Assembly: GCF_001753245.1 (NCBI RefSeq) | Contig: NZ_CP017415.1 | Location: 186,001-250,000, forward strand | Length of the DNA: 64,000 nucleotides | Reading direction: 5' to 3' | From: Acidihalobacter yilgarnensis | Lineage (GTDB): Bacteria > Pseudomonadota > Gammaproteobacteria > DSM-5130 > Acidihalobacteraceae | Part shown: positions 44,392 through 61,928 of the stretch, piece after piece | How the letters are laid out: the number at the start of each line of letters is the position of its first letter | Numbering within the stretch: position 1 is the first letter of the stretch | Position numbers and translations under genes: made by a program | Notes under the pieces: model-generated | What the model was told of the DNA's origin: nothing | What the model saw: the letters and a program-made list of their open reading frames with translations, nothing else | Databases searched by the model: none

Positions 44392-46101
44392 ATGAAACAA
44401 GAAGAACAGCAATTCCTCAGCGACCTCGACAAGCGCCTGTGGACTATGGCCAACAAGCTGTTGCCCATGCTCGACGCCGCCGTTTACAAACACGTCGTGC
44501 TCGGCCTCATTTTCCTCAAATATGTGTCGGATTCTTTCAAGGAGCGCCGCGAAGCGCTAAATGCCGCCTTCCGCGACCCGGAGAACGACTACTACCTCGG
44601 CGATGACGGCGAAGAGCTGATCGAACAGGAGCTCGAAGCCCGCGATTATTTCACCGAGAAGAACGTCTTCTGGGTGCCGGCGCTGGCGCGTTGGGATTTT
44701 CTGCAAGCTAATGCCAAGGTCGCGCTCGGTACCGTGCTGGAAGTGAAGAACGGCAAAATCTACGAATACAAATTCAACGGCATCGGCCGCCTGCTCGACG
44801 ACGCGCTCGAAGCCGTCGAGAAGGAAAACCCCAAACTCAAAGGCGTGCTGGAAAAAGACTACGCCCGCAAGCAGATCGACGCCGCGCTGCCGGGCCTCAT
44901 CGACCTTATCGCCGAAATCCCTTTCAAGCACGGCACGCTTCACGCCAAGGACATCCTCGGCCACGTCTACGAATACTTCCTCGGCGAGTTCGCCATGGCC
45001 GAGGGCAAGAAGGGCGGGCAGTACTACACGCCCAAGAGCATCGTTACCACCATCGTCGAAATGCTGGAGCCTTACCAGGGCCGCGTGTACGACCCCTGCT
45101 GCGGTTCCGGCGGCTTTTTCGTGCAGTCGGAAAAGTTTGTCGAAGAACACGGCGGCCGCATTGGTCAGCTCTCCGTCTACGGGCAGGAATCCAACCCCAC
45201 CACCTGGCGGCTGGCGTGCATGAATCTCGCCATTCGCGGTATGGACTTCGACCTCGGCAAGGAGCCCGCCAGCACCTACACCCGCGACCAACACCCCGAC
45301 CTGCGCGCCGACTTCATCATGGCCAACCCACCCTTCAATATGAAGGAATGGAACGCCGGCGTGAAAGACGACGACCCGCGCTGGCAATACGGCATTCCGC
45401 CTGCGAACAACGCCAACTTCGCCTGGATGCAGCACATGATCCACCATCTGGCGCCGCATGGCAGCATGGCCCTGCTGCTCGCCAACGGCTCCATGAGCAG
45501 CAACACCAACAACGAAGGCGAAATCCGCAAAGCGCTAATCGAAGCCGACCTCGTCGAATGCATGGTCGCGCTGCCCGGCCAGCTCTTCACCAACACCCAG
45601 ATTCCCGCCTGCATCTGGTTCCTTACCAAAACCAAACAGGGTAGCCGCCATTCCGCGCCTTCTTCTCGTCATTCCCGCGAAGGCGGGAATCCAGAATTTA
45701 GAAACCGCAAGGGCGAAACCCTCTTCATCGACGCGCGCAACCTCGGCTACATGAAAGACCGCGTGCTGCGCGACTTCGCCCCCGAAGACATTCGCAAAAT
45801 CGCCGACACCTTCCATGCCTGGAAGTCCGATAGCCGTCATTCCCGCGAAAACGGGAATCCAGTGGCTTATGAAGACATCCCCGGCTTCTGCAAATCGGCA
45901 ACGCTCGAATACATCCAAAAGCACGAGTACGTGCTCACCCCCGGACGCTACGTCGGCGCGGCGGAGCAGGAAGCCGACAGCGAACCGTTCGAGGACAAGA
46001 TGGCGCGGCTCACGGCCCAGTTGAGCGAACAGTTCGGCGAAAGCGCGCGGTTGGAAGCGGTGATACGCGAGAATCTGGCGAGGTTGGGTTATGGCGGGTG
46101 A
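44392..46101 (+). CDS. hsdM: Type I restriction-modification methyltransferase HsdM, with two in-frame repeat insertions
   Basis: The 569-residue N6-adenine methyltransferase has an HsdM_N helical domain (about residues 1-165, LDKRLWTMANKLLPMLDAAVYKHVVLGLIFLKYVSD) and a catalytic domain with SAM motif VYDPCCGSGGFFVQ and NPPF in FIMANPPFNMKEW. After CIWFLTKTK two palindromic repeats interrupt the protein in frame, coding SSRHSREGGNPEF (DNA 45671-45690) and DSRHSRENGNP (DNA 45839-45858). Both leave the frame open and lie near surface-loop positions late in the domain. hsdS overlaps its stop. The gene appears able to make full-length protein. Confidence 0.93.
   Translation: MKQEEQQFLSDLDKRLWTMANKLLPMLDAAVYKHVVLGLIFLKYVSDSFKERREALNAAFRDPENDYYLGDDGEELIEQELEARDYFTEKNVFWVPALARWDFLQANAKVALGTVLEVKNGKIYEYKFNGIGRLLDDALEAVEKENPKLKGVLEKDYARKQIDAALPGLIDLIAEIPFKHGTLHAKDILGHVYEYFLGEFAMAEGKKGGQYYTPKSIVTTIVEMLEPYQGRVYDPCCGSGGFFVQSEKFVEEHGGRIGQLSVYGQESNPTTWRLACMNLAIRGMDFDLGKEPASTYTRDQHPDLRADFIMANPPFNMKEWNAGVKDDDPRWQYGIPPANNANFAWMQHMIHHLAPHGSMALLLANGSMSSNTNNEGEIRKALIEADLVECMVALPGQLFTNTQIPACIWFLTKTKQGSRHSAPSSRHSREGGNPEFRNRKGETLFIDARNLGYMKDRVLRDFAPEDIRKIADTFHAWKSDSRHSRENGNPVAYEDIPGFCKSATLEYIQKHEYVLTPGRYVGAAEQEADSEPFEDKMARLTAQLSEQFGESARLEAVIRENLARLGYGG
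45671..45690 (+). repeat. Palindromic repeat inside hsdM (copy 1)
   Basis: ATTCCCGC-GAAG-GCGGGAAT is flanked by CGTC and CCAGAA. It belongs to the dispersed ATTCCCGC...GCGGGAAT family (dRS3-like) seen in many proteobacteria, and here it is translated as HSREGGNP. Confidence 0.85.
45839..45858 (+). repeat. Palindromic repeat inside hsdM (copy 2)
   Basis: ATTCCCG-CGAAAA-CGGGAAT, flanked by CGTC and CCAG, is a slightly diverged second copy translated as HSRENGNP, 168 bases after the first and in the same frame. Confidence 0.8.
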
Positions 46102-47246
46102 GAGAAACAAAATGACAATTGGCGAGATTGCGGCAAAGACACGCAACGCACTTGTCGGAGGCCCATTTGGTTCAAACCTTGTATCGGCTGATTACACAGC
46201 AAATGGTGTTCCTGTCATTCGAGGCCAGAACATGGGATCTCGTTGGGTGTCAGGTGAGTTCGCATATGTGTCGCCAGAAAAGGCTCAATCACTACAGTCA
46301 AATCTCGCTAGACCTGGTGACATCGTATTTACTCAACGCGGAACATTGGGGCAGGTTGCGTTAGTTCCAGAAGGTGTTTTCGATTCATATGTTGTTTCAC
46401 AAAGTCAGATGAAACTGACGGTCGATCAAACAAAGGCCAATTCGCATTTTCTTTATTATCTTTTTAGTTCGCCCGCACAACAAGAATACATCAGGCAAAA
46501 TGCGATTCAGGTTGGTGTTCCCCACACCAATCTCGGGATTCTCCGCGATACGCCGGTAAGTTTGCCATCAATCGACGAACAACGCGCCATCGCTCACATC
46601 CTCGGCACCCTCGACGACAAGATCGAACTCAACCGCTGCATGAACGAAACGCTGGAGGCCATCGCGCGGGCGATCTTCAAGTCCTGGTTTGTCGACTTCG
46701 ACCCCGTCCGCGCCAAAGCCAGCGGCGAAGCGCCTGAATCCATCTGCCGTCGCCTCGGCCTCACCCCCGACCTCCTCTCCCTCTTCCCCAACCGCTTCGT
46801 CGATTCCGAACTCGGCGAGATTCCGGAGAGGTGGGAGGTGCGAGCCGTGGGTGATGTTATAGAACGGTTGTCGGTCGGTAAGAAATACGAGCAAAAGACA
46901 GTAAAGACCGTGGGCAAGGTTCCAGTGTTGGATCAAGGCAAGTCCGGAATAATCGGATTCCACGATGACGAACCTGGTGTGACCGCATCGACAGACAGCC
47001 CTGTTGCAGTCTTCGCAAACCACACCTGCTATATGCGCCTAATTTATTTTCCGTTCTCAGCTATCCAAAACGTACTTCCATTTGTTGGCAAAGGTGTAGA
47101 TACGATTTGGGCGTTTCAAGCGACATTTGGAAAGCAGGCTTTCATCGAATACAAAGGCCACTGGCCTGACTTTGTGATTCACAAGGTTGTCGTTCCGGAT
47201 CTGGATTTGGCTACCGAGTACTCAAAAGTAGTCCATTCGATGTTAA

Positions 47247-47259
47247 CAGGCTGTTGAAA
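47247..47259 (+). repeat. Left terminal inverted repeat of the IS element
   Basis: CAGGCTGTTGAAA is the exact reverse complement of 48535-48547 at the right end. Confidence 0.9.
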
Positions 47260-47313: not shown

Positions 47314-48399
47314 ATGCGAGGAGCTGATATTCAGCAGGACGGGCTGTTCAGCACGGTGAGTCCGGAGCAACGAGTGCCGAAGGATCACCCACTTCGGCCG
47401 ATCCGGCAGATGGCCGATGAGGCGCTTGCGGCATTGGATGGCGACTTCGATGCGCTTTACGCAGGACTGGGGCGCGACTCGATCCCACCGGAGAAGCTGC
47501 TGCGGGCCCAGCTGCTGATGGTGCTGTACTCGATTCGAAGCGAACGCCAGCTGATGGAGCAGCTCGACTACAACCTGCTATTTCGCTGGTTCGTGGGCTT
47601 TTCGATGGATGACAAGGTCTGGCACCACTCGACGTTCACCAAGAACCGCGATCGGTTGCTTGAGGGCGAAGTGGCGCACCGCTTTTTTGCCCAGGTGCTC
47701 AAGCAGGCCCGGGGTGCGGATCTGCTGTCCAGGGAGCATTTCAGCGTCGACGGCACCCTGATCGAGGCCCTGGCTTCGCTCAAGAGCTATCGGCCGAAGG
47801 ATGAAGACGAACCGCCGACGCAGGGCGGCGGCCGCAACCCCTCGGTGGACTTCCGCGGTGAGCGCCGCACGCGCGACACCCATGCCTCGAAGACCGACCC
47901 GCAGGCCTTTCTCTTTCGCAAGAGCCAAGGCACGACCGCCAAGCTCAGCTACATGGGCCATCTGCTGATGGAGAACCGCCACGGCCTGGTGGTCGATGCG
48001 CGGGTCAGTCAGGCGACGGGCCGGGCCGAACGGGAGGTGGGTGCCGAGATGGTCGAAGCGCTCACAGGCACGCATCGGGTGACCGTGGGCGCGGACAAGA
48101 ACTACGACACACGGGGCTTCGTGCGGCGGCTTCGCGAGGCGAACGCCACGCCACACGTTGCGCAGAACGACACCCGGCGTACGTCGGCGATCGATGGACG
48201 TACCACGGCACATCCTGGCTACCGCAGCAGCCAGACGATCCGCAAGCGGATCGAGGAATGCTTTGGGTGGGCGAAGACGATCGGTGGGCTGCGCAAGAGC
48301 CGGTTTGTAGGTCCCGAGAAGCTCGACTTTCAGTTCGTGCTGACGATGGCCGCCTACAACCTGGTTCGGATGCGCAATCTGGGGGTGGCGGCATGTTGA
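47314..48399 (+). CDS. IS5-family transposase (DUF772 + DDE)
   Basis: The 361-residue transposase has an N-terminal DUF772-type helical domain (about residues 25-115, KLLRAQLLMVLYSIRSERQLMEQLDYN) and a DDE catalytic core: Asp146 in FSVDGT, Asp261 in VGADKNYD, and Glu313/314 in RIEECFGWAKTIGGLRK. The frame is intact, so the element may be active. Confidence 0.95.
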   Translation: MRGADIQQDGLFSTVSPEQRVPKDHPLRPIRQMADEALAALDGDFDALYAGLGRDSIPPEKLLRAQLLMVLYSIRSERQLMEQLDYNLLFRWFVGFSMDDKVWHHSTFTKNRDRLLEGEVAHRFFAQVLKQARGADLLSREHFSVDGTLIEALASLKSYRPKDEDEPPTQGGGRNPSVDFRGERRTRDTHASKTDPQAFLFRKSQGTTAKLSYMGHLLMENRHGLVVDARVSQATGRAEREVGAEMVEALTGTHRVTVGADKNYDTRGFVRRLREANATPHVAQNDTRRTSAIDGRTTAHPGYRSSQTIRKRIEECFGWAKTIGGLRKSRFVGPEKLDFQFVLTMAAYNLVRMRNLGVAAC

Positions 48400-48675: not shown

Positions 48676-49683
48676 ATGAGCGCCGGCGGCGGCGAATTGG
48701 TAATTTTTGAGGCGGCGGGGCAGCCGGTTGAGGTGCGCCTGGATGCCCAGGGGGATACGGTCTGGTTGACGCAGCGGCAGATGGGCGCGCTGTTCGACAC
48801 CACGCCGGAAAACGTCTTGATGCACCTGAAGAACATATTCCGTGAGGCGGAACTGGACGAGACGGCAACGACTAAGGATTTCTTAGCAGTTCGAACCGAG
48901 GGCAAGCGTAATGTCCGGCGCAACCTGAGGCATTACAACCTCGACGCCATTATTTCGGTCGGCTACCGCGTCAGCTCAAGGCGCGCCGTGCTGTTCCGCC
49001 AATGGGCAACGGGTGTGCTGCGCGAACATCTGACCCGTGGCTACACCCTCAACCACCAGCGCTTCGAGCAGAATGCCCGCGAGCTGGATGCGGCGCTGGC
49101 GCTGGTGCGCAAGGCGGCGCAAAGCCCGGAATTACGGGGTGACGAGGGGCGCGGCCTGGTGGATGTGGTGACGCGCTATGCGCAGACCTTCCTGCTGCTG
49201 CAACGCTACGACGAGGGTCTGCTGGCCGAGCCGCAGGTGGTGGCTGGCGGCCGGTTGCCCACGCTGGCCGAGGCGCACGCGGCATTGGCCGGGTTGAAGG
49301 CTGAGCTGATCGCGCGCGGTGAGGCAACGCCGTTGTTCGCGCAGGAGCGGGGCGATGCCTTTGCCGCCTTGCTCGGCAATCTTGAGCAGACAGTGTTCGG
49401 CGAACCCGCTTACCCGAGCGTGGAGGCGAAGGCGGCGCACCTGTTGTATTTCGTCATCAAGAACCATCCATTTTCGGACGGCAACAAGCGCAGCGCCGCC
49501 TTTTTGTTCGTGGACTTTCTGAATCGAAACGCCCGCCTGTTGGACGTGGCCGGGCACCCCGTAATTAACGACATCGGCCTGGCTGCCCTGGCTTTGCTGG
49601 TGGCCGAGTCCGACCCGGCGCAGAAGGAAACGATGATCCGGTTGATCATGAACATGTTGGTGGGGGCGGTGCATGATCACTGA
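48676..49683 (+). CDS. RhuM-Fic fusion protein (virulence RhuM domain plus Doc-type Fic domain)
   Basis: The 335-residue protein has a RhuM/Bro-like N-terminal domain (about residues 8-125, [28 protein letters not shown] and [29 protein letters not shown]) fused to a Fic/Doc domain with [13 protein letters not shown] (264-276). The Lys in GNKR resembles Doc kinases rather than the HPFxxGNGR AMPylators. RhuM-family genes are common passengers inside type I systems. The ATG overlaps the hsdS stop (ATGA), so before the IS insertion it was coupled to hsdS. Function in the host is unknown; modification of a host or phage target is a possibility. Confidence 0.88.
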
Positions 49684-49887
49684 AGACCAGCTCGAACAGC
49701 TTGCCCTGACCTGGTTTCAGGACGCCGGCTGGGACTACCGTCACGGCCCGGATATTGCCCCGGACGGTGATGCCCCGAGCGTGCCGACTACCGGCAGGTG
49801 TTGCTGCAAGGGCGCTTGCACGAGGCGGCGATGCTGGATCAGCTGCTGCTGGGTGCGATCAAGGCTGAAGACGAGGATAGGGAATGA
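49673..49887 (+). pseudogene. Duplicated 5' end of hsdR, frameshifted and fused to an unrelated tail
   Basis: The frame reads [17 protein letters not shown] and on to GPDIAPDGDAP, nearly identical to the start of hsdR at 51159. It leaves frame at CCCC (49773-49776), exactly the position where hsdR does. One added C gives ERADYRQVLLQGRLHEA and then MLDQLLLGAIKAEDEDRE with a stop at 49887, 71 residues in all. The tail does not match HsdR. The stop overlaps the next rhuM start (ATGA). It is a remnant of a duplication, or a small gene built from one. Confidence 0.75.
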
Positions 49888-50478
49888 ACGACGGATTGGG
49901 CGAGATTGTCCTGTATGAATCGCCCGATGGCGAGATTCATTTGGAGGTGCGGCTTGAACGGGATACGGTGTGGCTGTCGCAAGAGCAGATGGCGGCCTTG
50001 TTCGACGTGCAAAAAGCGGCGATTTCCAAGCATCTGAAGAATATTTTTGCGAGTAGCGAATTGGAGCGTGCGGCAACTGTTTCCAAAATGGAAACGGTTC
50101 AACAAGAGGGGGCGCGCCGTGTTTCCCGGCAGATCGAGCATTTCAACCTGGACGCGGTGATTTCGGTCGGATACCGGGTCAATTCCGCACGTGCAACCCG
50201 CTTTCGCCAGTGGGCCACCCGAGTGCTGCGCGAGCACTTGACCCAAGGATACACGCTGAACCGCCAGCGCTTCGAGCAGAATGCCCGCGAGCTGGAAGCG
50301 GCGCTGGCGCTGGTGCGCAAGGCGACGCAAAGCCCGGAATTGCGGGGTGACGAGGGGCGCGGCCTGGTGGATGTGGCCGTCCATTCCTGTGCCGTAACTC
50401 CCGGTTGGATGGCACCTCGAAAACCACTGGATTCGTCGCTCCTTGAAAAATCGGGGGTCAGTCAAGACAGGCAACTGG

Positions 50479-50498
50479 ATTCCCGCCTGCGCGGGAAT
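50479..50498 (+). repeat. Palindromic repeat in rhuM tail (copy 3)
   Basis: ATTCCCGC-CTGC-GCGGGAAT, same family as the hsdM repeats. It codes part of the tail of the truncated RhuM protein. Confidence 0.85.
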
Positions 50499-50609
50499 GA
50501 CGCGCTTTTCGAACTGCGAGCTTTTCTTGGGGCTGTCCGATGGTCTTTGGCGAGGGGCTCGGGCGAGCGGGGCGGGTTGGTTGATGTAACCGTCCATTCC
50601 TGTGCCGTC

Positions 50610-50629
50610 ATTCCCGCGCAGGCGGGAAT
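50610..50629 (+). repeat. Palindromic repeat before GIY-YIG gene (copy 4)
   Basis: ATTCCCGC-GCAG-GCGGGAAT, followed by CCAGA as in copy 1. It lies 20 bases before the GIY-YIG start and forms the last codons of the truncated rhuM. Confidence 0.85.
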
Positions 50630-50648
50630 CCAGATGTGAAGTGACGCC

Positions 50649-50943: not shown

Positions 50944-51158
50944 AAACAGGGATTCCTGCTCCGCGTCTTCGCAGGGACGGGCTCCTACAATCGGGAATGA
51001 CGGTTGGATGGAATCCCGAAAAACACCGGATTCGTCGCGCCCTGAAAAGTCGGGGCAGTAAAACCATGCAAATGGATACCCGCCTTCGCGGGTATGACGG
51101 GGTTTTCGCAGACGCCCGCTCCACGCGGATGACGGAGTAACGATGGCAGCAGATAAGC
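50944..51158. repeat. Repeat-rich spacer before hsdR
   Basis: The 215 bases contain a perfect ATACCCGC-CTTC-GCGGGTAT palindrome at 51076-51095 (copy 5, with A in place of T at the third base) and degenerate relatives near 50990-51040 (CGGGAATGACGGTTGG, GGAATCCCG). No gene is evident. Confidence 0.7.
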
Positions 51159-54100
51159 ATGATTACTGAAGGCGAGCTCGAACAACTTGCGCTGACCTGG
51201 TTTCAGGACACGGGCTGGGACTACCGTCACGGCCCGGATATTGCCCCGGACGGTGATGCCCCGAGCGCGCCGATTACCGACAGGTGTTGTTGACGGGGCA
51301 CTTGCACGATGCGTTGCGCCGGCTGAATCCCGATGTGCCCGAAACGGTGCTGGACGAGGTGATGCATCGGGTCGCCAAACTGCATGAGCCCTCACTGATC
51401 CAGAGCAACCGTGGATTTCACGAGGCGCTGCTGGACGGGCTGGCGGTAATTGTCGAGAAGAACGGAGAGAAGCGCGGCGACCGCGTGCGCCTGATCGACT
51501 TCGAGCTGCCGGAACAAAACCGCTTTCTGGTGGTGAACCAATTCACGGTGCAAGGCACCAAGCAGCCGCGCCGGCCAGATTTGGTGTGTTTCATCAACGG
51601 CATTCCCATCGCGGTGATCGAACTCAAGAACCCGGTCGCCGAGCAGGCGGATATCTGGTCGGCGTTCAATCAGATCGAAACCTACAAAGCCGAAATTTCT
51701 GATCTCTTTGTGTTCAACGAGGCGTTGGTGATTTCCGATGGCTTGCACGCGCGCGTGGGGTCGCTCACCGCCGACCGGGAGCGCTTCATGCCGTGGCGCA
51801 CCCTGCGCAACGAGAACGACCGGCCATTGCTGGAGTTTGAACTGGAGAAGGTGGTGCGCGGCTTCTTCGCACCCGAGCTGCTGTTGGATTATCTGCGCTA
51901 CTTCGTGTTGTTCGAGCAGGGCGACGACGGCATCATCAAGAAAATAGCCGGCTATCACCAGTTCCACGCCGTGCGCGAAGCGGTGCGCGCTACCGTGATT
52001 GCGGCCACGGTGGTTGCGCCTGACAGGGTGGCAGAGGCGCGCGCCGATTACGGCAAGCATGTCGTGCCCGGCTCGCGCAAGGGCGGCATCGTCTGGCATA
52101 CCCAGGGCTCGGGTAAGAGCATTTCCATGGTCTGCTTCGTCGGCAAGTTGATGCAGCAGCCGGAAATGCGTAACCCGACGATTGTCGTGGTCACCGACCG
52201 CAACGATTTGGACGGACAACTGTTCCAGACGTTTGCGGGTGCGCGAACGCTATTGAAGGAAACACCACAGCAAGCAGAAGACCGAGAGCGGTTGCGCACC
52301 CTGCTGAACGGGCGGCCATCCGGCGGCATTATTTTCACGACGGTGCAAAAGTTCTCGCCCGACAAGGACGAGGAGCAGTTCCCGCGTTTGACGGAACGCA
52401 CCAACGTCGTCGTCATCGCCGACGAGGCGCACCGCTCGCAGTATGGTTTTAAGGCGGTGCTGGACAAGAAGACGGGCCAATACAAATACGGCTTTGCCAA
52501 GCATCTGCGCGATGCCTTACCCAACGCGACCTTTGTGGGCTTTACCGGCACGCCGGTGGAGACCAACGATAAGGATACGCGCTCGGTGTTTGGCGACTAT
52601 GTCAGCGTCTACGACATCCAGGATGCAGTGGACGACGGCGCCACGGTGCCGATTTACTACGAAAGCCGCTTGGCAAAGCTGGATATTAATAAGCTGGAGA
52701 TCGAACAACTCAGCGATCAGGTTGAGGAAATCTTCGAGGACGAAGAAAGCCTCGCGATCCGTGAGGCGGGTAAGAGCAAGTGGGCCGCGCTGGAGAAGCT
52801 GGTTGGCGCTGAGCCGCGCATCCAGCAAGTGGCCGCCGACATCGTGCAGCACTTTGAGGCGCGCAATGCGTCAGTCGAAGGCAAGGGCATGATTGTGGGC
52901 ATGAGCCGCGAAATTTGCGCCCACCTCTACAACGCCATCGTGGCGCTGCGGCCGCAATGGCACAGCACCGACCCGGCACAGGGCGCGATCAAGGTCATCA
53001 TGACGGGTTCAGCGGCGGACAAAGAACTGTTGCAGCCCCATATCTACAACGCGACTACCAAGAAGCAACTGGAAAAACGCTTCAAGAACCCGAAGGACTC
53101 GCTGAAGCTGGTGATCGTGCGCGACATGTGGCTCACCGGCTTCGACGTGCCGTGTCTGCACACGATGTACGTGGACAAGCCGATGCGCGACCACAACCTG
53201 ATGCAGGCCATCGCCCGCGTGAACCGCGTGTTCCGCGACAAGGAAGGCGGGCTGGTGGTGGACTACATCGGCATCGCCGCCGAGTTGCGCCGAGCGTTGA
53301 AGATTTACACGGAAAGCCGCGGCAAGGGCCAACCGACACTCGACACGGCGGAAGCGCTGGCCAAGCTCAAGGAATTGATGGGCGTGGCGCGCGGGCTGTT
53401 GCACGGCTTCGACTACGCGGCCTATCGCACCCAGGCCACCGGCTTGCTACTGCCGGCTGCCAACTTTGTATTGGGGTTGGACGACGGCAAGAAACGCTGG
53501 TTCGACGTGGTACTGGCGATCACCAAGGCCTTTTCACTCTGCGGCACGCTGGATGAAGCGATTGAACTGCGCGAGGAAATCGCCTTCTTCCAGGCGATTA
53601 AGAGCGTGATCGCCAAGGCGACGGAGACCGACAAAAAACTCTCCGAGGACAAAAAGAACGCCGTCCTCAAGCAGATTCTCGACAACGCGGTCGTGGCCGA
53701 GGGCGTGGAGGACATCTTCAAGCTGGCGGGGTTGGATCGGCCGGACATTGGCATTTTGTCCGATGGATTCCTGGAAGAGGTGCGCAACCTGCCGCAGCGC
53801 AATTTTGCTGTCGAGCTGCTGCAAAAACTGCTCAATGACGAAATCAAATCGCGCAGCCGCACCAACGTGATTCTGGAGAAGAAATTCAGCGACCGCCTGA
53901 TGGCGGCGCTGAATCGATACCGCAGTCGCGCCATCGAAAGCGCGCAGGTCATCGAAGAGCTGATCCAGATGGCCAAGGATTTCCGCGAGGCCGCCAAGCG
54001 GGGCGAGAACCTGGGCCTCAACGAGTCCGAGCTGGCTTTCTATGACGCGCTGGCCGACAACGAAAGCGCCGTGCGTGAGTTGGGTGATGACATCCTGAAA

Positions 54101-54304
54101 ACGATCGCCCACGAACTCACCAACAAGTTGCGCAACAGCACCACGGTGGACTGGCAAAAACGCGAGAGCGTGCGTGCTCGGCTGCGCAATCTGGTGCGCA
54201 TTACCTTGCGGCGCTACAAATATCCGCCGGACAAGCAAGAAGAGGCGATCAGGTTGGTGCTGGAGCAGGCGGAGCGATTGTCGGACGAATGGTCGCATGG
54301 GTAA
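51159..54304 (+). CDS. hsdR: Type I restriction enzyme R subunit HsdR, with one-base frameshift near the start
   Basis: HsdR supplies ATP-dependent translocation and cleavage. From ATG 51159 it reads MITEGELEQLALTWFQDTGW to DIAPDGDAP and leaves frame at CCCC (51259-51262); one more C continues as ERADYRQVLLTGHLHDALRRLNPDVP in the frame of the remaining 1006 codons, for 1048 residues. The HsdR_N nuclease region contains RPDLVCFINGIPIAVIELKNP (D...ExK). The SF2 helicase has Walker A-like HTQGSGKSISM, DEAH in VVIADEAHRSQYGF and FTGTPVE. The C-terminal helical domain is complete. If the frameshift is real, initiation at 51284 or later would give a shortened protein that retains the nuclease motif. 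Confidence 0.92.
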
Positions 54305-54418: not shown

Positions 54419-55414
54419 GTGCATAAGATTGCCCGAATAGCGTACAACTCGAATGAATGGCAAAAGCCTTCGGGAAGCGCCAGAAAGCTTGAAGCGAAGA
54501 ATACTTACTATAGCCAGTACGGCTTTGGGCATGAAGAATGGCTATTCCGGTCGGAGTGGCTGATAGATGGCTGGCGTTACACTTTTGTACAGGGCGTGAA
54601 TAAAAGCCGGCGCAAATTAATTGAAGAAGGGAAACCTTTCGATTTGACGCTTTTTACTATCCAACCGGATAAAAAAAGACGCTATGTCGCCAGTATTCGC
54701 GACGTTGAGTGCGTTGAAGTCCAGCAAGCGGCTGAGGTTGTCGCCAGGTTTAAAAAGCTGGGGTGGTATCAATCAATGCTTGATGAAATTGAAGCGGTGA
54801 ATGGCAACTTTTCCGGGTTGGGTGATGGCGAATATGCAGATAGTATCGTTAATGTTCGATTTCGTCAGGAGAATGTTCGCCGGTTCGGACCAAAGGCCTA
54901 TGCAAAATCTGGTGATCCAATACTCGAGTTAAACCGATATCAGCTTTTTGACATTGACAAAATTGAAAAAGGTGTCGAGAAGTCTGGGCAAAAAGTGGCA
55001 AGAAAAGGCTCGACTGAGCCGCCAACGACAAGGTCGTTCATTCGGCGCGCTACTTCCGCAGTGGAGTGCACGCCTGAACATGCGCTCATACAGAAGCGAC
55101 TTATGAGTGAATTGAAGCTGGAATATCCCGAAGCTTTGGTCGAGAGTGAACGCGATTTTATCGATGTTAGCGTTACAACAAAGAAGGAGTTGATCCTTTT
55201 TGAAATAAAATCGGATCTCGAGCCAAGAACCGTAATTCGACAGGCATTGGGGCAGATTCTTGAATACGCCTACCATCCAAACAGAAAACATTTATTGCCA
55301 CTGCGGCTCGTTATTGTGGGTCGTCGTCCCCTGACATCGCTAGATAAAACCTACCTAGATCATCTGACAACGACTTTTTCCCTTCCGCTTACCTACCGGG
55401 TCGTCCAAGTCTAA
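54419..55414 (+). CDS. Unknown protein with C-terminal PD-(D/E)XK nuclease-like domain
   Basis: The 331-residue protein starts at GTG 54419 with GGAGG six bases upstream. The N-terminal half (YYSQYGFGHEEWLFRSEWLIDGWRYTFVQ) is rich in aromatic residues and resembles PUA/EVE-like modified-base readers in texture, without a confident match. The C-terminal domain has FIDVSVTTKKELILFEIKSD, a PD-(D/E)XK pattern (Asp249, Glu262, Lys264), and QALGQILEYAYHP as the following helix. Base composition is AT-richer than the core genome. It lies between hsdR and the NucS-like gene, so a restriction or defence role is likely but not shown. Confidence 0.7.
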   Translation: MHKIARIAYNSNEWQKPSGSARKLEAKNTYYSQYGFGHEEWLFRSEWLIDGWRYTFVQGVNKSRRKLIEEGKPFDLTLFTIQPDKKRRYVASIRDVECVEVQQAAEVVARFKKLGWYQSMLDEIEAVNGNFSGLGDGEYADSIVNVRFRQENVRRFGPKAYAKSGDPILELNRYQLFDIDKIEKGVEKSGQKVARKGSTEPPTTRSFIRRATSAVECTPEHALIQKRLMSELKLEYPEALVESERDFIDVSVTTKKELILFEIKSDLEPRTVIRQALGQILEYAYHPNRKHLLPLRLVIVGRRPLTSLDKTYLDHLTTTFSLPLTYRVVQV

Positions 55415-55427
55415 AGGGAATAACTCA

Positions 55428-56528
55428 ATGCCCATTCAACACGCCATTTGGAAAGTCGGGGACAAACCCGAGCCACTTTCGGCAAGTAAGCTCGCCAGCG
55501 AGCAGAAATTGGAAGCTATGATTGTGCGCGAACCGCACATCCTTTCCAGCGAATGGATGCTGATCGGGCAGCAGGAGAGTACCAACTATGGGGGGCGCAT
55601 TGATCTCCTAGCCATTGCCCCTGACGGTTCGCTGGTTTTGATCGAACTCAAGCGCGATAAAACGCCGCGTGAGATTGTTGCGCAGGCCCTCGACTATGCC
55701 TCGTGGGTGGAGCAGTTGACTTCCGATAAGATCGCTCAGATTTATCAGCGTTTCACCAACGGTGGCAAGCTGAACGAGGCGTTTAAGCAGCACTTCGGTA
55801 CTGAGCTGGATGAGGGTACGCTGAACCAGAGCCACCAGATCATCATTGTCGCATCGGCGCTAGATGCGACTACCGAGCGAATCATCGGTTATCTCAATGC
55901 CCGCGACATCGCCATTAATGCCGTGTTTTTCCAGGTGTTCCAGCATGGTGATGAGCAACTGCTGAGTCGCGTATGGCTCATCGATCCCGGTGAGACGCAG
56001 GCGAATGTGGCGATTACGACGACAAGCAAGGGCGAAAAAGAACCCTGGAATGGGGAATATTACGTGTCTTTTGGCGATGCAAGCTCGCGGAGTTGGGAAG
56101 ACGCACGCCAGTATGGCTTCATCAGCGCGGGAGGAGGCAGTTGGTATAGTCAGACGCTTAAACTCCTCTCACCAGGTGACAGGGTGTGGGTGAAGATTCC
56201 AAAGACGGGGTATGTCGGTGTCGGCCGAGTTACAGAGACGGTGCGCCCCATCAAAGAATTTACTGTTCAGACACTGACCGGTGAGCGCCCAGCATTGGAG
56301 GTATTGAAGCACGCCGATTCTTACAAGCAGTACGCCGATGATCCTGAGAAGGCGGAGTACTTTGTGCGGGTAGATTGGATTGATTCGGTGCCCGAAGAAA
56401 AAGCCATCAATGAGGTCGGTTTGTTCGGCAATCAGAATACCGTTTGCCAGCCAACCACACCCAAGTGGCGGCATACGGTGGAGCAGCTCAAGACGTACTT
56501 TCAGCACTGGGACAGAAAGCTAGACTGA
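55428..56528 (+). CDS. NucS-like PD-(D/E)XK nuclease with C-terminal unknown (possibly EVE-like) domain
   Basis: The 366-residue protein has an N-terminal DUF91/NucS-type nuclease domain: GGRIDLLAIAPDGSLVLIELKRD with Asp59, Glu73 and Lys75, then REIVAQALDYASWVEQL. The second half (about 200-340) contains NGEYYVSFGDASSRSWEDARQYGFISAGGGSWYSQTLKLLSPGDRVWVKIPKTGYVGVGRV, which reads like an EVE/PUA-type domain that binds modified bases. An AAGGGA ribosome site precedes the ATG, and the gap to the upstream gene is 13 bases, suggesting one operon. Target and activity are unknown. Confidence 0.78.
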   Translation: MPIQHAIWKVGDKPEPLSASKLASEQKLEAMIVREPHILSSEWMLIGQQESTNYGGRIDLLAIAPDGSLVLIELKRDKTPREIVAQALDYASWVEQLTSDKIAQIYQRFTNGGKLNEAFKQHFGTELDEGTLNQSHQIIIVASALDATTERIIGYLNARDIAINAVFFQVFQHGDEQLLSRVWLIDPGETQANVAITTTSKGEKEPWNGEYYVSFGDASSRSWEDARQYGFISAGGGSWYSQTLKLLSPGDRVWVKIPKTGYVGVGRVTETVRPIKEFTVQTLTGERPALEVLKHADSYKQYADDPEKAEYFVRVDWIDSVPEEKAINEVGLFGNQNTVCQPTTPKWRHTVEQLKTYFQHWDRKLD

Positions 56529-56630
56529 ATGACGCAGCAGAATGCAGTTGGGTTGGTTGGGGCAAGCTCGATTAACACCTTGGTGTTGGGTGAGACAGCC
56601 GATTCATAGACACAGTCCGGGACGAAAATA

Positions 56631-57497
56631 ATGGCGCGACGTAAACAGAGTGGCTTTGAAGATCTGATCGAAGTGGCGTCCAGGCTGCCCTGGTGGGCCG
56701 GAGTGGTGTTGGCGGCGATTGCCTATCTTGTGCTGCATCCGGTTGCGATTCGGGAGATTGCGGTGTCAGGTAATCTCAAAACGCTTGGCCCCTCTATGGT
56801 GGCGCAATTGTTCAAGACACTCGCCACATTTGGCCAATATCTATTGCCAGTCGCATTTTTGATTGGTTCGGTGATTTCTGTTTTCAAGCGACGCAAACGC
56901 AACCAGCTGGTCGAGCAGACCCAGGCTCGGGGTAAGCAAAGCGCCTTACTTGATATGAGCTGGCGCGAGTTTGAAATGTTGGTGGGCGAGGCATTCAGGC
57001 GTCGGGGTTTCACGGTTGAGGAAACGGGGGGTAATGGCCCGGACGGTGGGATCGACCTGGTGTTGAGAAAGGGGCGTGAGATTCACCTTGTGCAATGCAA
57101 GCAGTGGAAAGCGCTCAAGGTGGGTGTGGATGTGGTGCGGCAGCTTTATGGTGTGATGGCGGCAAAGGGTGCAACCGGTGGTTTTGTCGTTACATCGGGG
57201 CAGTTTTCAGCAGATGCTAAGGTCTTTGCGGAAGGACAAAACATCGAATTGATCGAAGGTAAGCAGCTGCTTGCCATGATCCAGACGGCGAAAGCTTCGG
57301 GTGTGGCCGCGACCGCCACTATGGTTCAGCCAATGGTGAAAAAGGATATAGAGAAGGTGGATTCTGCGCCTGCCTGCCCCCGTTGCGGCGGATCAATGGT
57401 TCGCCGTGTTGCCAGACAGGGAAGTAATGCGGGCAATGCATTCTGGGGGTGTTCTACCTACCCAAAATGTCGGGGCGTCACGGCAATTGATCAATAA
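56631..57497 (+). CDS. Membrane-anchored Mrr-like restriction endonuclease with C-terminal zinc ribbon
   Basis: The 288-residue protein has two membrane helices (about 21-37 and 66-84), a Mrr_cat domain with PDGGIDLVL (Asp142) and HLVQCKQWK (Gln155, Lys157), then GVMAAKGATGGFVVTSGQFS, and a topoisomerase-type zinc ribbon at the end (CPRCGG...CSTYPKC). Mrr-type enzymes cut methylated DNA; membrane-anchored versions with zinc ribbons are known but poorly studied. It follows the two nuclease genes on the same strand after 102 bases. Confidence 0.88.
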   Translation: MARRKQSGFEDLIEVASRLPWWAGVVLAAIAYLVLHPVAIREIAVSGNLKTLGPSMVAQLFKTLATFGQYLLPVAFLIGSVISVFKRRKRNQLVEQTQARGKQSALLDMSWREFEMLVGEAFRRRGFTVEETGGNGPDGGIDLVLRKGREIHLVQCKQWKALKVGVDVVRQLYGVMAAKGATGGFVVTSGQFSADAKVFAEGQNIELIEGKQLLAMIQTAKASGVAATATMVQPMVKKDIEKVDSAPACPRCGGSMVRRVARQGSNAGNAFWGCSTYPKCRGVTAIDQ

Positions 57498-58535: not shown

Positions 58536-58546
58536 CGCGCCTTGCT

Positions 58547-58570
58547 GTATGCTGTATGCATACAGCATAC
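58547..58570. promoter_or_regulatory. Palindromic operator, site 2
   Basis: A perfect 24-base palindrome (half-site GTATGCTGTATG) ends ten bases before the AbiEi-like ATG at 58581, with a GGAAAGAG ribosome site immediately after. Two spaced copies of the same palindrome before a toxin-antitoxin pair indicate negative autoregulation of the AbiE type. Confidence 0.75.
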
Positions 58571-58580
58571 GGAAAGAGTC

Positions 58581-59138
58581 ATGCCATCTGAATCAGCTGC
58601 GATGAAACGGGCGAGCGGTCGCCAGTGGGTACTCAAACCGCAGGATTTGGCGGTCGCCTTGAAGTTGGTGGTCTTGAAAGACCAGTGGCTGCCCTATGCC
58701 GCCTTGGGCGAGGCGATGTGTATGTCTCGCTTCGAGGCGCATGCAGCTGTCCAGCGTTTGACGGCGGCGCGGCTGGTAGCGGTGATCGACGGCCAGCCCA
58801 GGCCGGTGCTGGCGGCGCTGCGTGGGTTCGTGATTTATGGGGCATCGTATGCCTATCCTGCCGTGCGGGGCGAAATCACGATCGGGTTCCCAACGGCCTA
58901 CGGCGTTTCACCGCTGAAAGAGATCATGGTGGCCTCGAACGAGCCGCCGCCGGTATGGCCGCACCCCAAGGGTATTGCGCGGGGCCCGGGTTTGCTACCT
59001 TTGTACGAAAACCTGCCACTGGCGGCGCAGCAAGACCCTGTGCTCTATGAGTTACTGGCCTTGTTTGACGCGTTGCGCGCCGGGCAGGCAAGGGAACGCG
59101 AATTGGCCCGGAAACACCTAGAGAAACGTCTGAAGTGA
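58581..59138 (+). CDS. AbiEi-like winged-helix antitoxin/regulator
   Basis: The 185-residue protein contains a winged-helix-like N-terminal region (WVLKPQDLAVALKLVVLKDQWLPYAALGEAMCMSRFEAHAAVQRLTAARLV) with a typical recognition-helix pattern, followed by a Pro-rich domain (FPTAYGVSPLKEIMVASNEPPPVWPHPKG). The ATG at 58581 has GGAAAGAG upstream. The overlap (GTGA) with a nucleotidyltransferase toxin-like gene and the two palindromes upstream support an antitoxin that represses its own operon. It is shorter than classic AbiEi, so it may be a distinct subfamily. Confidence 0.65.
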   Translation: MPSESAAMKRASGRQWVLKPQDLAVALKLVVLKDQWLPYAALGEAMCMSRFEAHAAVQRLTAARLVAVIDGQPRPVLAALRGFVIYGASYAYPAVRGEITIGFPTAYGVSPLKEIMVASNEPPPVWPHPKGIARGPGLLPLYENLPLAAQQDPVLYELLALFDALRAGQARERELARKHLEKRLK

Positions 59139-59857
59139 GCGAAAACGTTTTCAGGCGGGATGATCCTAACCTGCCGATTTTGATGCTGATCGCGAAATCG
59201 CTCGGAACCTTATGTGACTCGCTGGTTTTTGTGGGCGGATGTGCGACAGGTCTGCTTCTGACTACGCCACGCGCCCAGGCGATCCGGGCTACGCAGGATG
59301 TGGATGTGGTGGTGCATGCCGTTTCCACTGCCGATTATCACGCGATGGAAAAGGCGGTCGAATCGCGTGGGTTCAAGCATGATCTTTCGCCCGAGGCGCC
59401 GATCTGCCGCTGGGTGTTGCAGGGCGTGGCGCTCGACTTGATGCCGAGCCAGCCCGGTATACTGGGGTTTCATAACCGCTGGTATCCCCTGGCCATTGAA
59501 ACCGCTGTGCAGATCAATCTGCCGAATGGCATGGATATCCGGCTGATTACAGCACCGGTTTTTGTGGCAACCAAGTTCGATGCTTTTCATGGCCGGGGTA
59601 ACAACGACTATCTCGCCAGCCATGACCTCGAAGACATTATTACGGTGGTCGATGGACGCCCTGAGTTGCAGCAGGAGATTGATCAAGCGGATGGTGAGCT
59701 GCGGCGCTATATCGCCGCCGAGTTCAATGTCTTGCTCGAAGACCGCGACTTTCTGATGGCGCTAGCCGGACATCTTCCCGGCGATGCTGCCAGCCAGGCG
59801 CGTCTGCCTGAACTGATCCGGCGCCTGCGCGCAATCGGCAAGATGAGGCAAGAATAA
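59135..59857 (+). CDS. AbiEii/AbiGii-like nucleotidyltransferase toxin
   Basis: The 240-residue protein has a minimal nucleotidyltransferase core: FVGGCATGLLLT (Gly34-Gly35) and ATQDVDVVVH (Asp55, Asp57). AbiEii toxins block phage spread by modifying tRNA or other targets using NTPs. The start is GTG 59135, overlapping the antitoxin stop by four bases. The C-terminal half is helical (ELQQEIDQADGELRRYIAAEFNVLLEDRDFLMALAGHL). It sits directly upstream of the second hsdM, a common location for such modules inside type I loci. Confidence 0.75.
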   Translation: MSENVFRRDDPNLPILMLIAKSLGTLCDSLVFVGGCATGLLLTTPRAQAIRATQDVDVVVHAVSTADYHAMEKAVESRGFKHDLSPEAPICRWVLQGVALDLMPSQPGILGFHNRWYPLAIETAVQINLPNGMDIRLITAPVFVATKFDAFHGRGNNDYLASHDLEDIITVVDGRPELQQEIDQADGELRRYIAAEFNVLLEDRDFLMALAGHLPGDAASQARLPELIRRLRAIGKMRQE

Positions 59858-59868
59858 GGAACCACACA

Positions 59869-61436
59869 GTGAACACCGCCAGCATCGTTCAAAAACTCTG
59901 GAACTACTGCAACGTCCTGCGTGACGACGGCATGAGCTACGGCGACTACGTGGAGCAGCTCACCTATCTGCTGTTCCTGAAAATGGCCGACGAGCGTAGC
60001 CGCTCGCCCTACAACCAGCCCAGCCCGGTGCTCGCCGGCTATGACTGGCCCAGCCTGGTGAAGAAGGACGGCGACGAGCTGTTCGAGCACTACCGCCACA
60101 CGCTGGAGGAGCTGGGCAGGCAGAAAGGCTTACTCGGCCTGATCTTCACCAAGTCGCAGAACAAGTTTGATTCGCGCCGCTTTATGGCGGCGCTCACCCT
60201 GCGGGCGCCTATGGGCGTCCAATCTCCAGTGGAGATTGTCAGGACCCGGCTAAGCTGCGGCGGCTGATCGTGGACCTGATCGACAAGGAAACCTGGGTGT
60301 CGATGAGCGCCGACGTGAAGGGCGACGCCTACGAGGGTCTGCTGGAGAAGAACGCGCAGGACACCAAGTCCGGCGCGGGCCAGTACTTCACGCCGCGCCC
60401 GCTGATCCAGGCGATTGTTGATGCCATGGCACCCACGCCCAAGGAAACCGTCTCCGATCCGGCCTGTGGCACCGGCGGCTTTTTGCTGGCGGCGCACGAC
60501 TATGTGGTGAAGCACTATCCCAACATGACGTCGGCGGAAAAGAAGAAGCTGCGTGGACAGAACTTCAAAGGCTGGGAGTTGGTGCAGGCCACCGCCCGGC
60601 TGTGCGCGATGAACATGCTGCTGCACGGTATCGGCACGCAGGAACACGAGCCGATCGAGGTGGGTGATTCGCTGGCCGCCGACCCCGGCGAGCGCTTCGA
60701 TGTGGTACTGACCAATCCGCCCTTCGGCAAGAAGAGCAGCACGACCATCGTGGGCGAGGGAGGACAGGTCAGCAAGGAACGCGACAGCGTCGAGCGCGAC
60801 GACTTCTGGGCCACCACTTCGAATAAGCAACTCAACTTCGTCCAGCACGTGAAGACGCTGTTGAAGCAGAGCGGCCGTGCCGCCCTGGTGCTGCCCGACA
60901 ACGTACTGTTCGAAGGTGGGGCGGGCGAGACCATCCGTCGCAAACTGCTACACGACTGCGACGTCCACACCCTGCTGCGCCTGCCCACCGGCCTGTTCTA
61001 TGCCCAGGGCGTGAAGGCGAACGTGTTGTTCTTCGACAAGAAGCCCGCCAGTGAGACTCCATGGACTCGCAAGCTGTGGATCTACGACCTGCGCACCAAC
61101 ATGCACTTCACGCTCAAGACAAACACTTTGAAACGGGAAGACCTGGACGAATTCGTGCAGTGCTACCACCCGGAAAACCGGCATGACCGCAAGGCCACCT
61201 GGACCGAAAAGCGCAGCCCGAATGGGCGTTGGCGTGCCTTTGACTACAAGGATCTGATCAACCGAGACAAGGCCAGCCTCGACATCTTCTGGCTCAAGGA
61301 CGAATCTCTGTCTGACTCTGACAACCTGCCCGCACCGGAGGTGATTGCGGCGGAGATTGTGGGGGATTTGGAGGCGGCGTTGGAGCAGTTCCGCGAAATA
61401 CTGGCGGACTTGGGCGAGGCTGGCAGCGTGGCGTGA
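59869..61436 (+). pseudogene. hsdM: Second HsdM methyltransferase, broken by a 74-bp hairpin insert
   Basis: The 5' part from GTG 59869 reads MNTASIVQKLWNYCNVLRDD and on to FTKSQNK, the N-terminus of EcoEI-class HsdM. Bases 60166-60239 then replace the expected single Ile codon, and the other frame resumes at QDPAKLRRLIVDLIDKETW. The remaining catalytic domain (60270-61436) is intact, with SDPACGTGGFLLAA and NPPFGKK. Without the insert the protein would be 498 residues. No hsdS or hsdR partner follows. The N-terminal HsdR relic at 44245 is of the class that fits this HsdM. Confidence 0.88.
60166..60239 (+). mobile_element. 74-bp hairpin-rich insert in the second hsdM
   Basis: The segment holds two perfect small hairpins, GCGCCGC/GCGGCGC (60174-60193, six-base loop) and CAATCTCC/GGAGATTG (60220-60238, three-base loop). 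The coding sequence on each side joins normally when the segment is replaced by one codon. It looks like a non-autonomous palindromic element; no target duplication is clear. Confidence 0.6.
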
Positions 61437-61579
61437 AGGCGCGTTCGGCAGCAGGTGCAGCGCGTGGCTTCGCGTGGGCGGCTGTTCTCTATTCCGGAAA
61501 TAAGAATAAGGCGATGAACACTATGTTGATGGTGGGTGATGAGCGATCAGTCAAAACTTGGGATTGAATGGGTGCTGAT

Positions 61580-61886
61580 ATGAGTGATCTCGTCATCTTC
61601 GAATCCAATGCGCAGCAGGTCGAAGTGCGGCTGGAAGGGGCGACTGTTTGGCTGAGACAGCGGCAGATGGGCGAGCTTTTCGGGGCCATGCCGGAAAACG
61701 TCCTGATGCACCTGAAAAACATTTTTCAGATTTTTGCTGTATTTGCGCTAGGCGGGCATGCGCCTGACGCTGGACGAGAACGGCCTGACGGCACTGGCAT
61801 TGCTGATTGCCGAGCGCGATTCGAAGCGCAAGGATCTGATGGTGCGACGGGTGATGCATCTGCTGGCGCAAGGTGGGGTGGGATGA
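61580..61886 (+). pseudogene. rhuM/fic deletion remnant
   Basis: MSDLVIFESNAQQVEVRLEG to [13 protein letters not shown] is the first 46 or so residues of a RhuM protein. An abrupt junction follows, and the other frame reads GMRLTLDENGLTALALLIAE through DLMVRRVMHLLAQGGVG to TGA 61886, the end of a Fic domain like that at 49683. The middle, including the HPFxDGNKR motif, is deleted. Confidence 0.75.
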
Positions 61887-61928
61887 TGCGCGGGGGTCGG
61901 TAAAACCCTATCTGCCAGTTTTGATGCC

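What the first reader, a model, noticed from the sequence alone, without database searches (positions are those of the whole stretch)
54419..57497. Three consecutive nuclease-type genes: candidate undescribed defence cluster
A PD-(D/E)XK protein with an aromatic-rich N-terminal domain, a NucS-like nuclease with an EVE/PUA-like C-terminal domain, and a membrane-anchored Mrr with zinc ribbon follow hsdR in one direction, the first two 13 bases apart. Modified-base readers joined to nucleases suggest a type IV-like system sensing altered phage DNA, possibly placed at the membrane where phage DNA enters. I know no named system with this composition.
Basis: inference. Interest (0 to 1): 0.7.

Follow-up and report, generated by a model that had tools for sequence, protein, structure and literature searches.

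The report
Spare DNA cutters behind restriction genes
Three different DNA-cutting enzymes sit directly behind a worn type I restriction locus; they look like separately acquired backup defences rather than one new system, but the first belongs to an unnamed nuclease family with an undescribed sensor-like domain.

Summary
54419-55414 encodes a PD-(D/E)XK nuclease with an unnamed N-terminal domain (g1). 55428-56528 encodes a NucS-like nuclease with a C-terminal EVE/YTH-fold domain (g2). 56631-57497 encodes Mrr_cat plus zinc ribbon behind two hydrophobic segments (g3). They follow hsdR in one direction.

A conserved three-gene system is not supported: 0 of 44 g1 loci hold g2 or g3 homologues in the stretch fetched, and no g2 locus scanned holds g1 or g3. 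g2 is already PADLOC candidate PDC-S11. GC differs (46.6, 53.9, 54.7%; window 60.2%).

What recurs is each gene riding in type I restriction loci. g1 relatives lie between hsdS and hsdM in 7 of 37 genome loci; close g2 relatives lie 10-35 bp behind hsdS in 5 of 7.

Best explanation: independent, predicted modification-dependent (type IV-like) nucleases that back up a type I enzyme. g2's reader fold supports this. For g1 it is inferred: its N-domain occurs with PD-(D/E)XK or HNH nucleases, often behind further unnamed modules.

New here: the g1 family, without a match above cut-off in Pfam, PADLOC, NCBIfam or a credible one in PHROGs. Activity and specificity are untested.

The parts
54419..55414 (+). 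g1: N-terminal unnamed domain (about residues 1-160, invariant N10, W14, P17, E40, W41; usual motif G-[FY]-G-H-E-E-W) plus C-terminal PD-(D/E)XK nuclease (about 190-331; D249, E262-x-K264, Q279)
   Evidence: ORF; model; fold match of 190-331; conservation over 40 rows; no family above cut-off
55428..56528 (+). g2: NucS-like nuclease (residues 24-179; E25, D59, E73-x-K75, Q86) plus C-terminal EVE/YTH-fold domain (about 206-366); PADLOC PDC-S11
   Evidence: PDC-S11 548.5 bits; NucS_C; model; fold matches; conservation over 10 rows
56631..57497 (+). g3: two hydrophobic N-terminal segments, Mrr_cat nuclease (D...QxK site), zinc ribbon of topoisomerase type
   Evidence: Pfam; hydropathy; motif; phrog_33422 222.7 bits
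51284..54304 (+). hsdR, type I restriction subunit; open frame lacks about the first 39 profile positions, frame from upstream ATG 51160 is broken
44392..46101 (+). hsdM1 of the type I locus (PDLC03019, 600.4 bits)
46091..47257 (+). hsdS; best profile matched over positions 1-273 of 446, C-terminal part unmatched; a transposase-like gene (IS5-type, recalled) begins 56 bp further
58542..59857 (+). PDC-M21A/PDC-M21B pair, another PADLOC candidate, between g3 and the second hsdM
   Evidence: 113.6 and 229.5 bits
59869..61436 (+). second hsdM (PDLC03026 family), split by about 74 extra nt around 60193-60272; its larger part is 50-60% identical to the hsdM beside seven g1 relatives

Best explanation
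The three genes are separate, independently acquired nuclease modules parked behind (and, in relatives, inside) a type I restriction locus. g1 and g2 are predicted type IV-like enzymes. A reader domain (C-terminal EVE/YTH fold in g2; N-terminal unnamed domain in g1) binds DNA carrying a modified base, and the attached PD-(D/E)XK domain cuts nearby. g3 is an Mrr-type nuclease, possibly membrane-anchored. In this position they would act as a second line: the type I enzyme cuts unmodified foreign DNA, and the riders cut foreign DNA whose modification blocks the type I enzyme. Shown here: domain make-up, nuclease folds, conserved catalytic residues, EVE/YTH fold of g2, repeated embedding in type I loci, lack of co-inheritance of the three in the loci scanned. 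Inferred: modified-base recognition, cleavage, the backup role, membrane placement.
For: g2 C-terminal model residues match PH1033 (an EVE-type protein, recalled; Z 10.3, rmsd 2.9, 118 aligned), the EVE-HNH restriction enzyme VcaM4I (Z 9.5, rmsd 3.7, 124) and the m6A reader YTHDC1 (Z 9.3, rmsd 3.6, 130); the nuclease part matches 2vld, NucS (Z 11.9, rmsd 2.1, 107); Foldseek finds 2eve at E 5.2e-4. Nuclease residues invariant in 10 of 10 g2 rows; in g1 D249 and K264 in 40 of 40, E262 and Q279 in 39 of 40 rows, the exception being L030, which has HNH instead. The g1 N-domain is joined to PD-(D/E)XK in 39 of 44 loci, to HNH in 2 (L030, L051), and 3 copies (L029, L038, L044) are truncated or broken; a plasmid copy L006 is also HNH. 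The same swap is described for EVE domains (PMC7641849 section 9). Embedding: type I genes near g1 relatives in 8 of 37 genome loci and 1 of 7 viral loci (there on the other strand, 1.5 kb away); in 7 of the 8 g1 lies between hsdS and hsdM. The embedded state needs at least 4 changes on the tree if only these seven are counted as embedded, 5 with the window, 6 with L047. g2: directly behind hsdS in 5 of 7 close relatives (L007, L076-L079) and behind hsdS or hsdM, at most one ORF away, in 6 of 11 viral contigs. Different GC of g1, g2, g3.
Against: No activity is shown by any search. The fold of the g1 N-domain could not be tested alone; profile comparison with EVE gives probability 0.1% and E 0.53, and with the g2 reader 0.4%. 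29 of 37 g1 genome loci show no type I genes by the scan (7 of the 37 are under 7 kb), so embedding is a minority state. g2 is often solitary: in 4 of 7 further plasmid loci (L089, L092, L093, L094 of L089-L095) the scan found no type I gene; L090 has a methyltransferase and an annotated hsdS fragment, L095 a methyltransferase, and in L091 the scan called nothing. The window protein itself has no Pfam EVE match; 1 of 10 g2 rows has one, at E 0.014. The window's hsdR and second hsdM carry frame breaks, so the type I partner may no longer work.
Confidence: 0.58

Rival explanations
1. The three genes form one co-operating defence system: g1 and g2 made from one transcript, g3 at the membrane.
For: Same strand, g1 and g2 13 bp apart, all three nuclease-type genes, next to hsdR.
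Against: 0 of 44 g1 loci contain g2 or g3 homologues in the stretch held, nor do three plasmid loci (L004-L006) or the extra locus L158; none of the g2 loci scanned (L007, L061-L106) contains g1 or g3 (L061-L075 hold only 3-4 kb each); GC contents differ.
Confidence: 0.07
2. Guard model, like PrrC in EcoprrI: the g1 or g2 product is held by the type I enzyme and released when a phage protein inhibits that enzyme, then cuts DNA and kills the cell.
For: Repeated embedding between hsdS and hsdM or behind hsdS; at least 4 changes of the embedded state on the g1 tree. PrrC precedent in PMC3874165 and PMC12707154 (passages).
Against: 29 of 37 g1 genome loci show no type I genes nearby, so the protein does not seem to depend on a neighbouring type I enzyme; g2 carries a reader fold of its own.
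Confidence: 0.12
3. The riders repair or process DNA (mismatch or damaged-base endonucleases) rather than restrict it.
For: g2's nuclease is closest to the mismatch endonuclease NucS/EndoMS.
Against: g2 scores 34.3 bits against a cut-off of 216 for the NucS equivalog, its second domain has the EVE/YTH fold, and the distribution is patchy (22 of 398 genomes) and often tied to type I loci.
Confidence: 0.08
4. The genes are passive cargo at a recombination hotspot; the type I locus is decaying and the riders are no longer under selection here.
For: Frame breaks in hsdR and the second hsdM, a transposase-like gene, duplicated segments. Type I loci as insertion hotspots: DarTG2 between hsdS and hsdR (PMC12255303, passages).
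Against: All three reading frames are open with catalytic residues kept.
Confidence: 0.15

Closest known systems
EVE-PD(D/E)XK and EVE-HNH predicted type IV enzymes (Bell et al. 2020, PMC7641849); VcaM4I (PDB 6yex)
   Same: g2 has a PD-(D/E)XK nuclease and an EVE/YTH-fold domain; g1's N-domain, like EVE, is found with PD-(D/E)XK and with HNH.
   Different: g2's nuclease is NucS-like and N-terminal; g1's N-domain has no detectable sequence similarity to EVE and its fold was not tested alone.
PADLOC PDC-S11
   Same: g2 matches model PDLC04916 over its whole length, 548.5 bits.
   Different: None seen. PDC-S11 is itself only a candidate. In a 100-strain P. aeruginosa panel, 90% of the 10 carriers were classed resistant (PMC10855318, passage), which is a correlation.
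E. coli immigration control region (mcrBC, hsd genes, mrr)
   Same: Type IV-type genes beside a type I locus (PMC3874165, passage).
   Different: Other nuclease families; here the genes follow hsdR, or sit inside the operon in relatives.
EcoprrI with embedded prrC
   Same: A second weapon inside a type I operon (PMC3874165, passage).
   Different: PrrC is an anticodon nuclease; g1 and g2 carry PD-(D/E)XK folds.
Mrr-type restriction endonucleases
   Same: g3 has Mrr_cat, 116.7 bits, with a D...QxK site.
   Different: No winged-helix N-terminal family was reported for g3; it has two hydrophobic segments and a zinc ribbon instead.

Membership tests
Type IV (modification-dependent) restriction enzyme | nuclease domain with intact catalytic residues | tested here: met
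   g1 and g2 folds and conserved residues; g3 Mrr_cat
Type IV (modification-dependent) restriction enzyme | domain with a modified-base reader fold, g2 | tested here: met
   EVE/YTH fold of about residues 206-366, Z 8.5-10.3 in the rows shown; fold only, binding not tested
Type IV (modification-dependent) restriction enzyme | domain with a modified-base reader fold, g1 | tested here: inconclusive
   N-domain not searched alone; the nuclease fills the list; no useful PDB or Pfam sequence match; EVE comparison not significant
Type IV (modification-dependent) restriction enzyme | cuts modified and spares unmodified DNA | not testable with these tools
   needs purified protein or plaque assays
PADLOC PDC-S11 | full-length profile match | tested here: met
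   PDLC04916, residues 1-360 to 1-356 of 358, E 1.6e-165
EVE (Pfam PF01878) | g2 over the Pfam gathering score | tested here: not met
   no match for the window protein at E up to 1; 1 of 10 rows at E 0.014
NucS/EndoMS mismatch endonuclease | equivalog score over curated cut-off | tested here: not met
   34.3 bits against 216 (NF003270), 14.5 against 252 (NF002876)
Shedu (SduA) | SduA_C over gathering score | tested here: not met
   18.6 bits against 27
Mrr restriction endonuclease | Mrr_cat domain over cut-off | tested here: met
   116.7 bits against 21
Mrr restriction endonuclease | N-terminal winged-helix domain as in E. coli Mrr | tested here: not met
   no such family among the nine Pfam matches of g3 at E up to 1; hydrophobic N-terminus instead
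One three-gene defence system | genes recur together elsewhere | tested here: not met
   0 of 44 g1 loci with g2 or g3; no g1 or g3 in the g2 loci scanned

The most novel reading that the evidence does not exclude
The g1 N-terminal domain is a new class of reader for modified or otherwise foreign DNA. It is used as a plug-in by both PD-(D/E)XK and HNH nucleases, stacked with several further unnamed modules, and drafted repeatedly into type I restriction operons between hsdS and hsdM, so that one operon restricts both unmodified and modified phage DNA.
Probability: 0.4. Interest if true: 0.65.

Novelty: new variant of a known kind. Interest (0 to 1): 0.45.

Why it matters
If right, a small, widely scattered nuclease family (record titles name Bacteroidota, Pseudomonadota, Myxococcota, Planctomycetota, one archaeal assembly and others) carries an unrecognised sensor domain. 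It would add to the set of modified-base readers, which are useful as tools for mapping DNA modifications, and would give a directly testable case of type I operons carrying their own backup against phages with modified DNA. The wider idea, defence genes embedded in other defence loci, is already in print.

Tried and rejected
Conserved three-gene system: rejected on co-occurrence.

First thought that hsdS was missing: wrong. Whole-genome family searches placed hsdS and another hsdM at genome 232310-232657 and 230944-231972, which is window 46310-46657 and 44944-45972, and the ORF list then showed both genes.

Tried to identify the g1 N-domain: Pfam on 35 members gave 22 scattered families, the most frequent DUF2540 in 3 of 35 (best E 0.00031; not followed up); hmmsearch against PDB gave one hit at E 3.8; hhalign against the g2 reader 0.4% and against 22 EVE proteins 0.1%, the latter placing one beta hairpin in a plausible register but far from significance. 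In the same test the g2 reader scored only 29% against EVE (E 0.00058), so the test is weak. Foldseek in PDB and BFVD with the g1 model gave no match at E below 0.001, and the rows of the second look span residues 190-331. The order of elements in the N-domain model (strand-helix-strand-helix-strand-strand, helices, strand-strand) resembles the EVE order quoted in PMC7641849; this is a comparison by eye.

Extra N-terminal modules of g1 relatives: none of the 10 scanned has a Pfam match above cut-off.

Neighbours of g1 in loci without type I genes: 53 proteins scanned against PADLOC; 127 families matched at E 1e-8, 25 were shown, none in more than 2 of 53 members; they include IetA/IetS, type II methyltransferases and PDC-S14. 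So some of these loci hold other defence genes, but no constant partner showed.

Phage records: no g1 match; g2 one partial match. A first viral scan with g2 alone found nothing. A last viral scan with the 35-row N-domain alignment gave 6 loci, 5 on contigs already held and one new (L158), which is not in the 44; its g1 gene has the nuclease and no type I, g2 or g3 gene was called there.

The roughly 74 nt extra in the second hsdM: a 91-base query over it has no second match in the genome at E 0.001.

Of 109 plasmid records with g2 matches I opened 8 (H7-H9, H11-H14, H17).

Confidence in the best explanation was lowered slightly, and that of the passive-cargo rival raised, for this reason.

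Papers: searches. Passages seen of PMC7641849 (also section 9 in full), PMC12707154, PMC11514479, PMC3874165, PMC12988326, PMC12255303, PMC10855318, PMC11037411; outline and abstract of PMC12923530. The source of the PDC set (bioRxiv 10.1101/2024.01.29.577857) was seen only as a reference. In these listings and passages I saw no description of the g1 family, but a text search cannot find an unnamed domain, and most subscription papers are not held.
Full report
What is in the window. They follow hsdR (51284-54304; TIGR00348, 614.4 bits). The locus is larger than reported. It begins with hsdM1 (44392-46101) overlapping hsdS (46091-47257), then a transposase-like gene (47314-48399; IS5-type by its sequence, recalled, no call names it), a RhuM-Fic gene (48676-49683), a second RhuM gene and hsdR. 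After g3 come the PADLOC candidate pair PDC-M21A/B and a second hsdM of another family (PDLC03026 rather than PDLC03019), with a RhuM-like fragment behind it. The locus is worn. The frame from the hsdR ATG at 51160 is broken, so the long open frame starts late. A 157-nt copy of that region lies at 49671-49827, 90% identical. The second hsdM carries about 74 extra nucleotides that split its frame. The best hsdS profile is matched only over the first 273 of 446 positions.

g1. No family in PADLOC or NCBIfam matches at E up to 1, the one PHROGs match is at E 0.18, and Pfam gives only sub-threshold hits. A scan of one genome for each of 84,980 species (the tool's figure) with a three-row alignment of the N-domain found 37 loci, and IMG/VR gave 7. 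Both counts are lower bounds, because the scan starts from short patterns; two pairs are near-copies (L046/L047, and L048/L052, identical). A later scan added one more, L158, not counted below. The full domain pair is rare in the window's own phylum: of 398 genomes searched with the 40-row profile, 3 matched, only the window's own over the whole length, the other two over the nuclease part. AlphaFold gives a confident model (pLDDT 91, pTM 0.61). Residues 190-331 are a PD-(D/E)XK fold: Can2 Z 10.0 (rmsd 3.4, 124 aligned), McrC 8.9 (3.3, 107), EndoMS 8.9 (3.4, 105). D249 and K264 are kept in 40 of 40 rows, E262 and Q279 in 39 of 40; the exception, L030, has an HNH domain there, so its K264 is chance.

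The g1 N-domain. About 160 residues, with N10, W14, P17, E40 and W41 invariant in 40 of 40 rows and a motif that usually reads G-[FY]-G-H-E-E-W. It is joined to PD-(D/E)XK in 39 of 44 loci, to HNH in 2, and 3 copies are truncated or broken; a Vibrio gigantis plasmid copy is also HNH. In 15 of 44 loci a further 160-320 residues precede it, not counting L045, whose start is unsure, and L014 with 90. Most of those fall into two sequence classes: one in L012, L026, L032, L035 and L041, also found directly on the same kind of nuclease without the motif domain in L003; another in L015, L018, L027, L028, L031 and L042. None of the 10 scanned has a Pfam match above cut-off. A domain that is swapped between unrelated nuclease folds and stacked with other modules is most simply a target-recognition or sensing domain. 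That is inference; its fold was not tested alone, and no profile comparison links it to EVE.

g2. It matches PADLOC PDC-S11 over its full length (548.5 bits). The model is moderate (pLDDT 75, pTM 0.46), but both halves have clear relatives: NucS/EndoMS for residues 24-179 (2vld Z 11.9, rmsd 2.1, 107 aligned) and EVE/YTH for about 206-366, including the EVE-HNH restriction enzyme VcaM4I (Z 9.5) and YTHDC1 (Z 9.3). It does not pass as a NucS orthologue: 34.3 bits against a cut-off of 216. Pfam's EVE model finds 1 of 10 g2 rows, at E 0.014, and not the window's. EVE-PD(D/E)XK enzymes as predicted type IV restriction enzymes were described in 2020 (PMC7641849, section 9).

g3. Mrr_cat and a topoisomerase-type zinc ribbon behind two hydrophobic segments. 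It is common: 1397 plasmid records match, 54 of them over at least 80% of the query. It is a member of a known kind.

Do they belong together? Loci were scanned with profiles for HsdR, HsdM, HsdS, g1 and g2 (E up to 1e-6) and with phmmer for g3 (1e-10), on a crude ORF call. 0 of 44 g1 loci contain g2 or g3, nor do three plasmid loci; 7 of the 44 are under 7 kb, so absence there is weak, and distant Mrr relatives of g3 could be missed. A tblastn of the window's proteins agrees. No g2 locus scanned contains g1 or g3. GC is 46.6% (g1, in the lowest 1-kb stretch of the window), 53.9% (g2) and 54.7% (g3), against 60.2% for the window. They were probably acquired separately.

What does recur. g1 relatives have type I genes near them in 8 of 37 genome loci. 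In 7 of the 8 the gene lies between hsdS and hsdM (L012, L015, L018, L035, L036, L040, L042; L015, L018 and L036 with other genes between as well), in 5 of the 7 within 11 bp of hsdM. That HsdM is 50-60% identical to the larger part of the window's second, broken hsdM. In the eighth (L038) a truncated copy follows hsdR. 1 of 7 viral loci (L047) has type I genes, on the other strand and 1.5 kb away. On a tree of 39 relatives the embedded state changes at least 4 times if only the seven clear loci count as embedded, 5 with the window, and 6 with L047, so the association arose or was lost repeatedly; counts of changes cannot tell gain from loss, and the label is somewhat clustered (8 of 500 shuffles as low). 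Close g2 relatives lie 10-35 bp behind hsdS in 5 of 7 cases (L076-L079, and pPAG5 L007, where g2 is in two pieces); of the other two, L080 has type I genes on the opposite strand and L081 has none. Among 11 viral contigs with g2, 4 have it directly behind hsdS, 1 directly behind hsdM, 1 one ORF further, and 1 behind a weak hsdS remnant. In 15 more distant relatives from a phylum-wide sample (22 of 398 genomes matched), 3 show hsdS-g2-hsdR and 1 has hsdS upstream, within loci of only 3-4 kb. Of 7 further plasmid loci, 4 have no type I gene by the scan; L090 has a methyltransferase and an annotated hsdS fragment. g3 is beside type I genes in 1 of 6 viral loci.

How it most likely works. The type I enzyme cuts foreign DNA that lacks the host's methyl marks. 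Phages escape by modifying bases. g2, through its EVE/YTH domain, and g1, through its N-domain, would bind such modified DNA and cut it with their PD-(D/E)XK domains; g3 would add an Mrr-type activity, possibly at the membrane. Only the anatomy is shown. Precedents for the arrangement: mcrBC and mrr near hsd genes and prrC inside EcoprrI (PMC3874165, passages), DarTG2 between hsdS and hsdR (PMC12255303, passages), and the 'guilt-by-embedding' search that produced the PDC set (cited in PMC12988326 and PMC10855318, passages; original not read). In a panel of 100 P. aeruginosa strains, 90% of the 10 carrying PDC-S11 were classed phage-resistant (PMC10855318, passage); this is a correlation.

Verdict. 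Observation confirmed; interpretation partly supported. g2 and g3 are known kinds. The g1 family is the new part: an uncatalogued nuclease family with an undescribed, modular sensor-like domain that recurs inside type I operons. I rate it a new variant of a known kind.

Noticed in passing
49671-49827 and 51157-51313: 157-nt direct repeat, 90% identical, covering the 5' end of hsdR; a RhuM gene and GIY-YIG-like fragments (by eye) lie between the copies.
   Followed up: partly
60193-60272: About 74 extra nucleotides inside the second hsdM, containing an 8-bp inverted repeat with a 3-base loop; a 91-base query over it has no second match in the genome.
   Followed up: partly
44392-46101: hsdM1 contains two in-frame stretches reading like RHSREGGNP and RHSRENGNP, as if a short dispersed repeat had inserted without breaking the frame.
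   Followed up: no
48676-49683, 49884-50639, 61568-61903: Three RhuM-type genes or fragments flank the locus, related by direct repeats; PADLOC lists the first two as PDC-S23 and PDC-S05.
   Followed up: no
58542-59857: PDC-M21A/PDC-M21B pair between g3 and the second hsdM; a further embedded candidate in the same locus.
   Followed up: no
L051 2181-4088: Viral-contig protein with an unnamed N-terminal region, the g1 N-domain and a C-terminal HNH.
   Followed up: partly
L006 5992-7020: g1 N-domain fused to HNH_2 on a Vibrio gigantis plasmid, flanked by two recombinase-family genes.
   Followed up: partly
L084 9295-16806: A 2503-residue protein directly behind an hsdR-hsdM-hsdS-g2 run in a viral contig.
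   Followed up: no
L008 4104-5336: The g1-type nuclease on a Pseudoalteromonas plasmid carries a different N-terminal region that looks EVE-like by eye; Pfam names nothing at E 0.01.
   Followed up: no
L032 9319-12981: Genes beside the g1 relative are an AAA ATPase and a subtilase-type peptidase; IetA and IetS are among the PADLOC families matched by the neighbour set.
   Followed up: no
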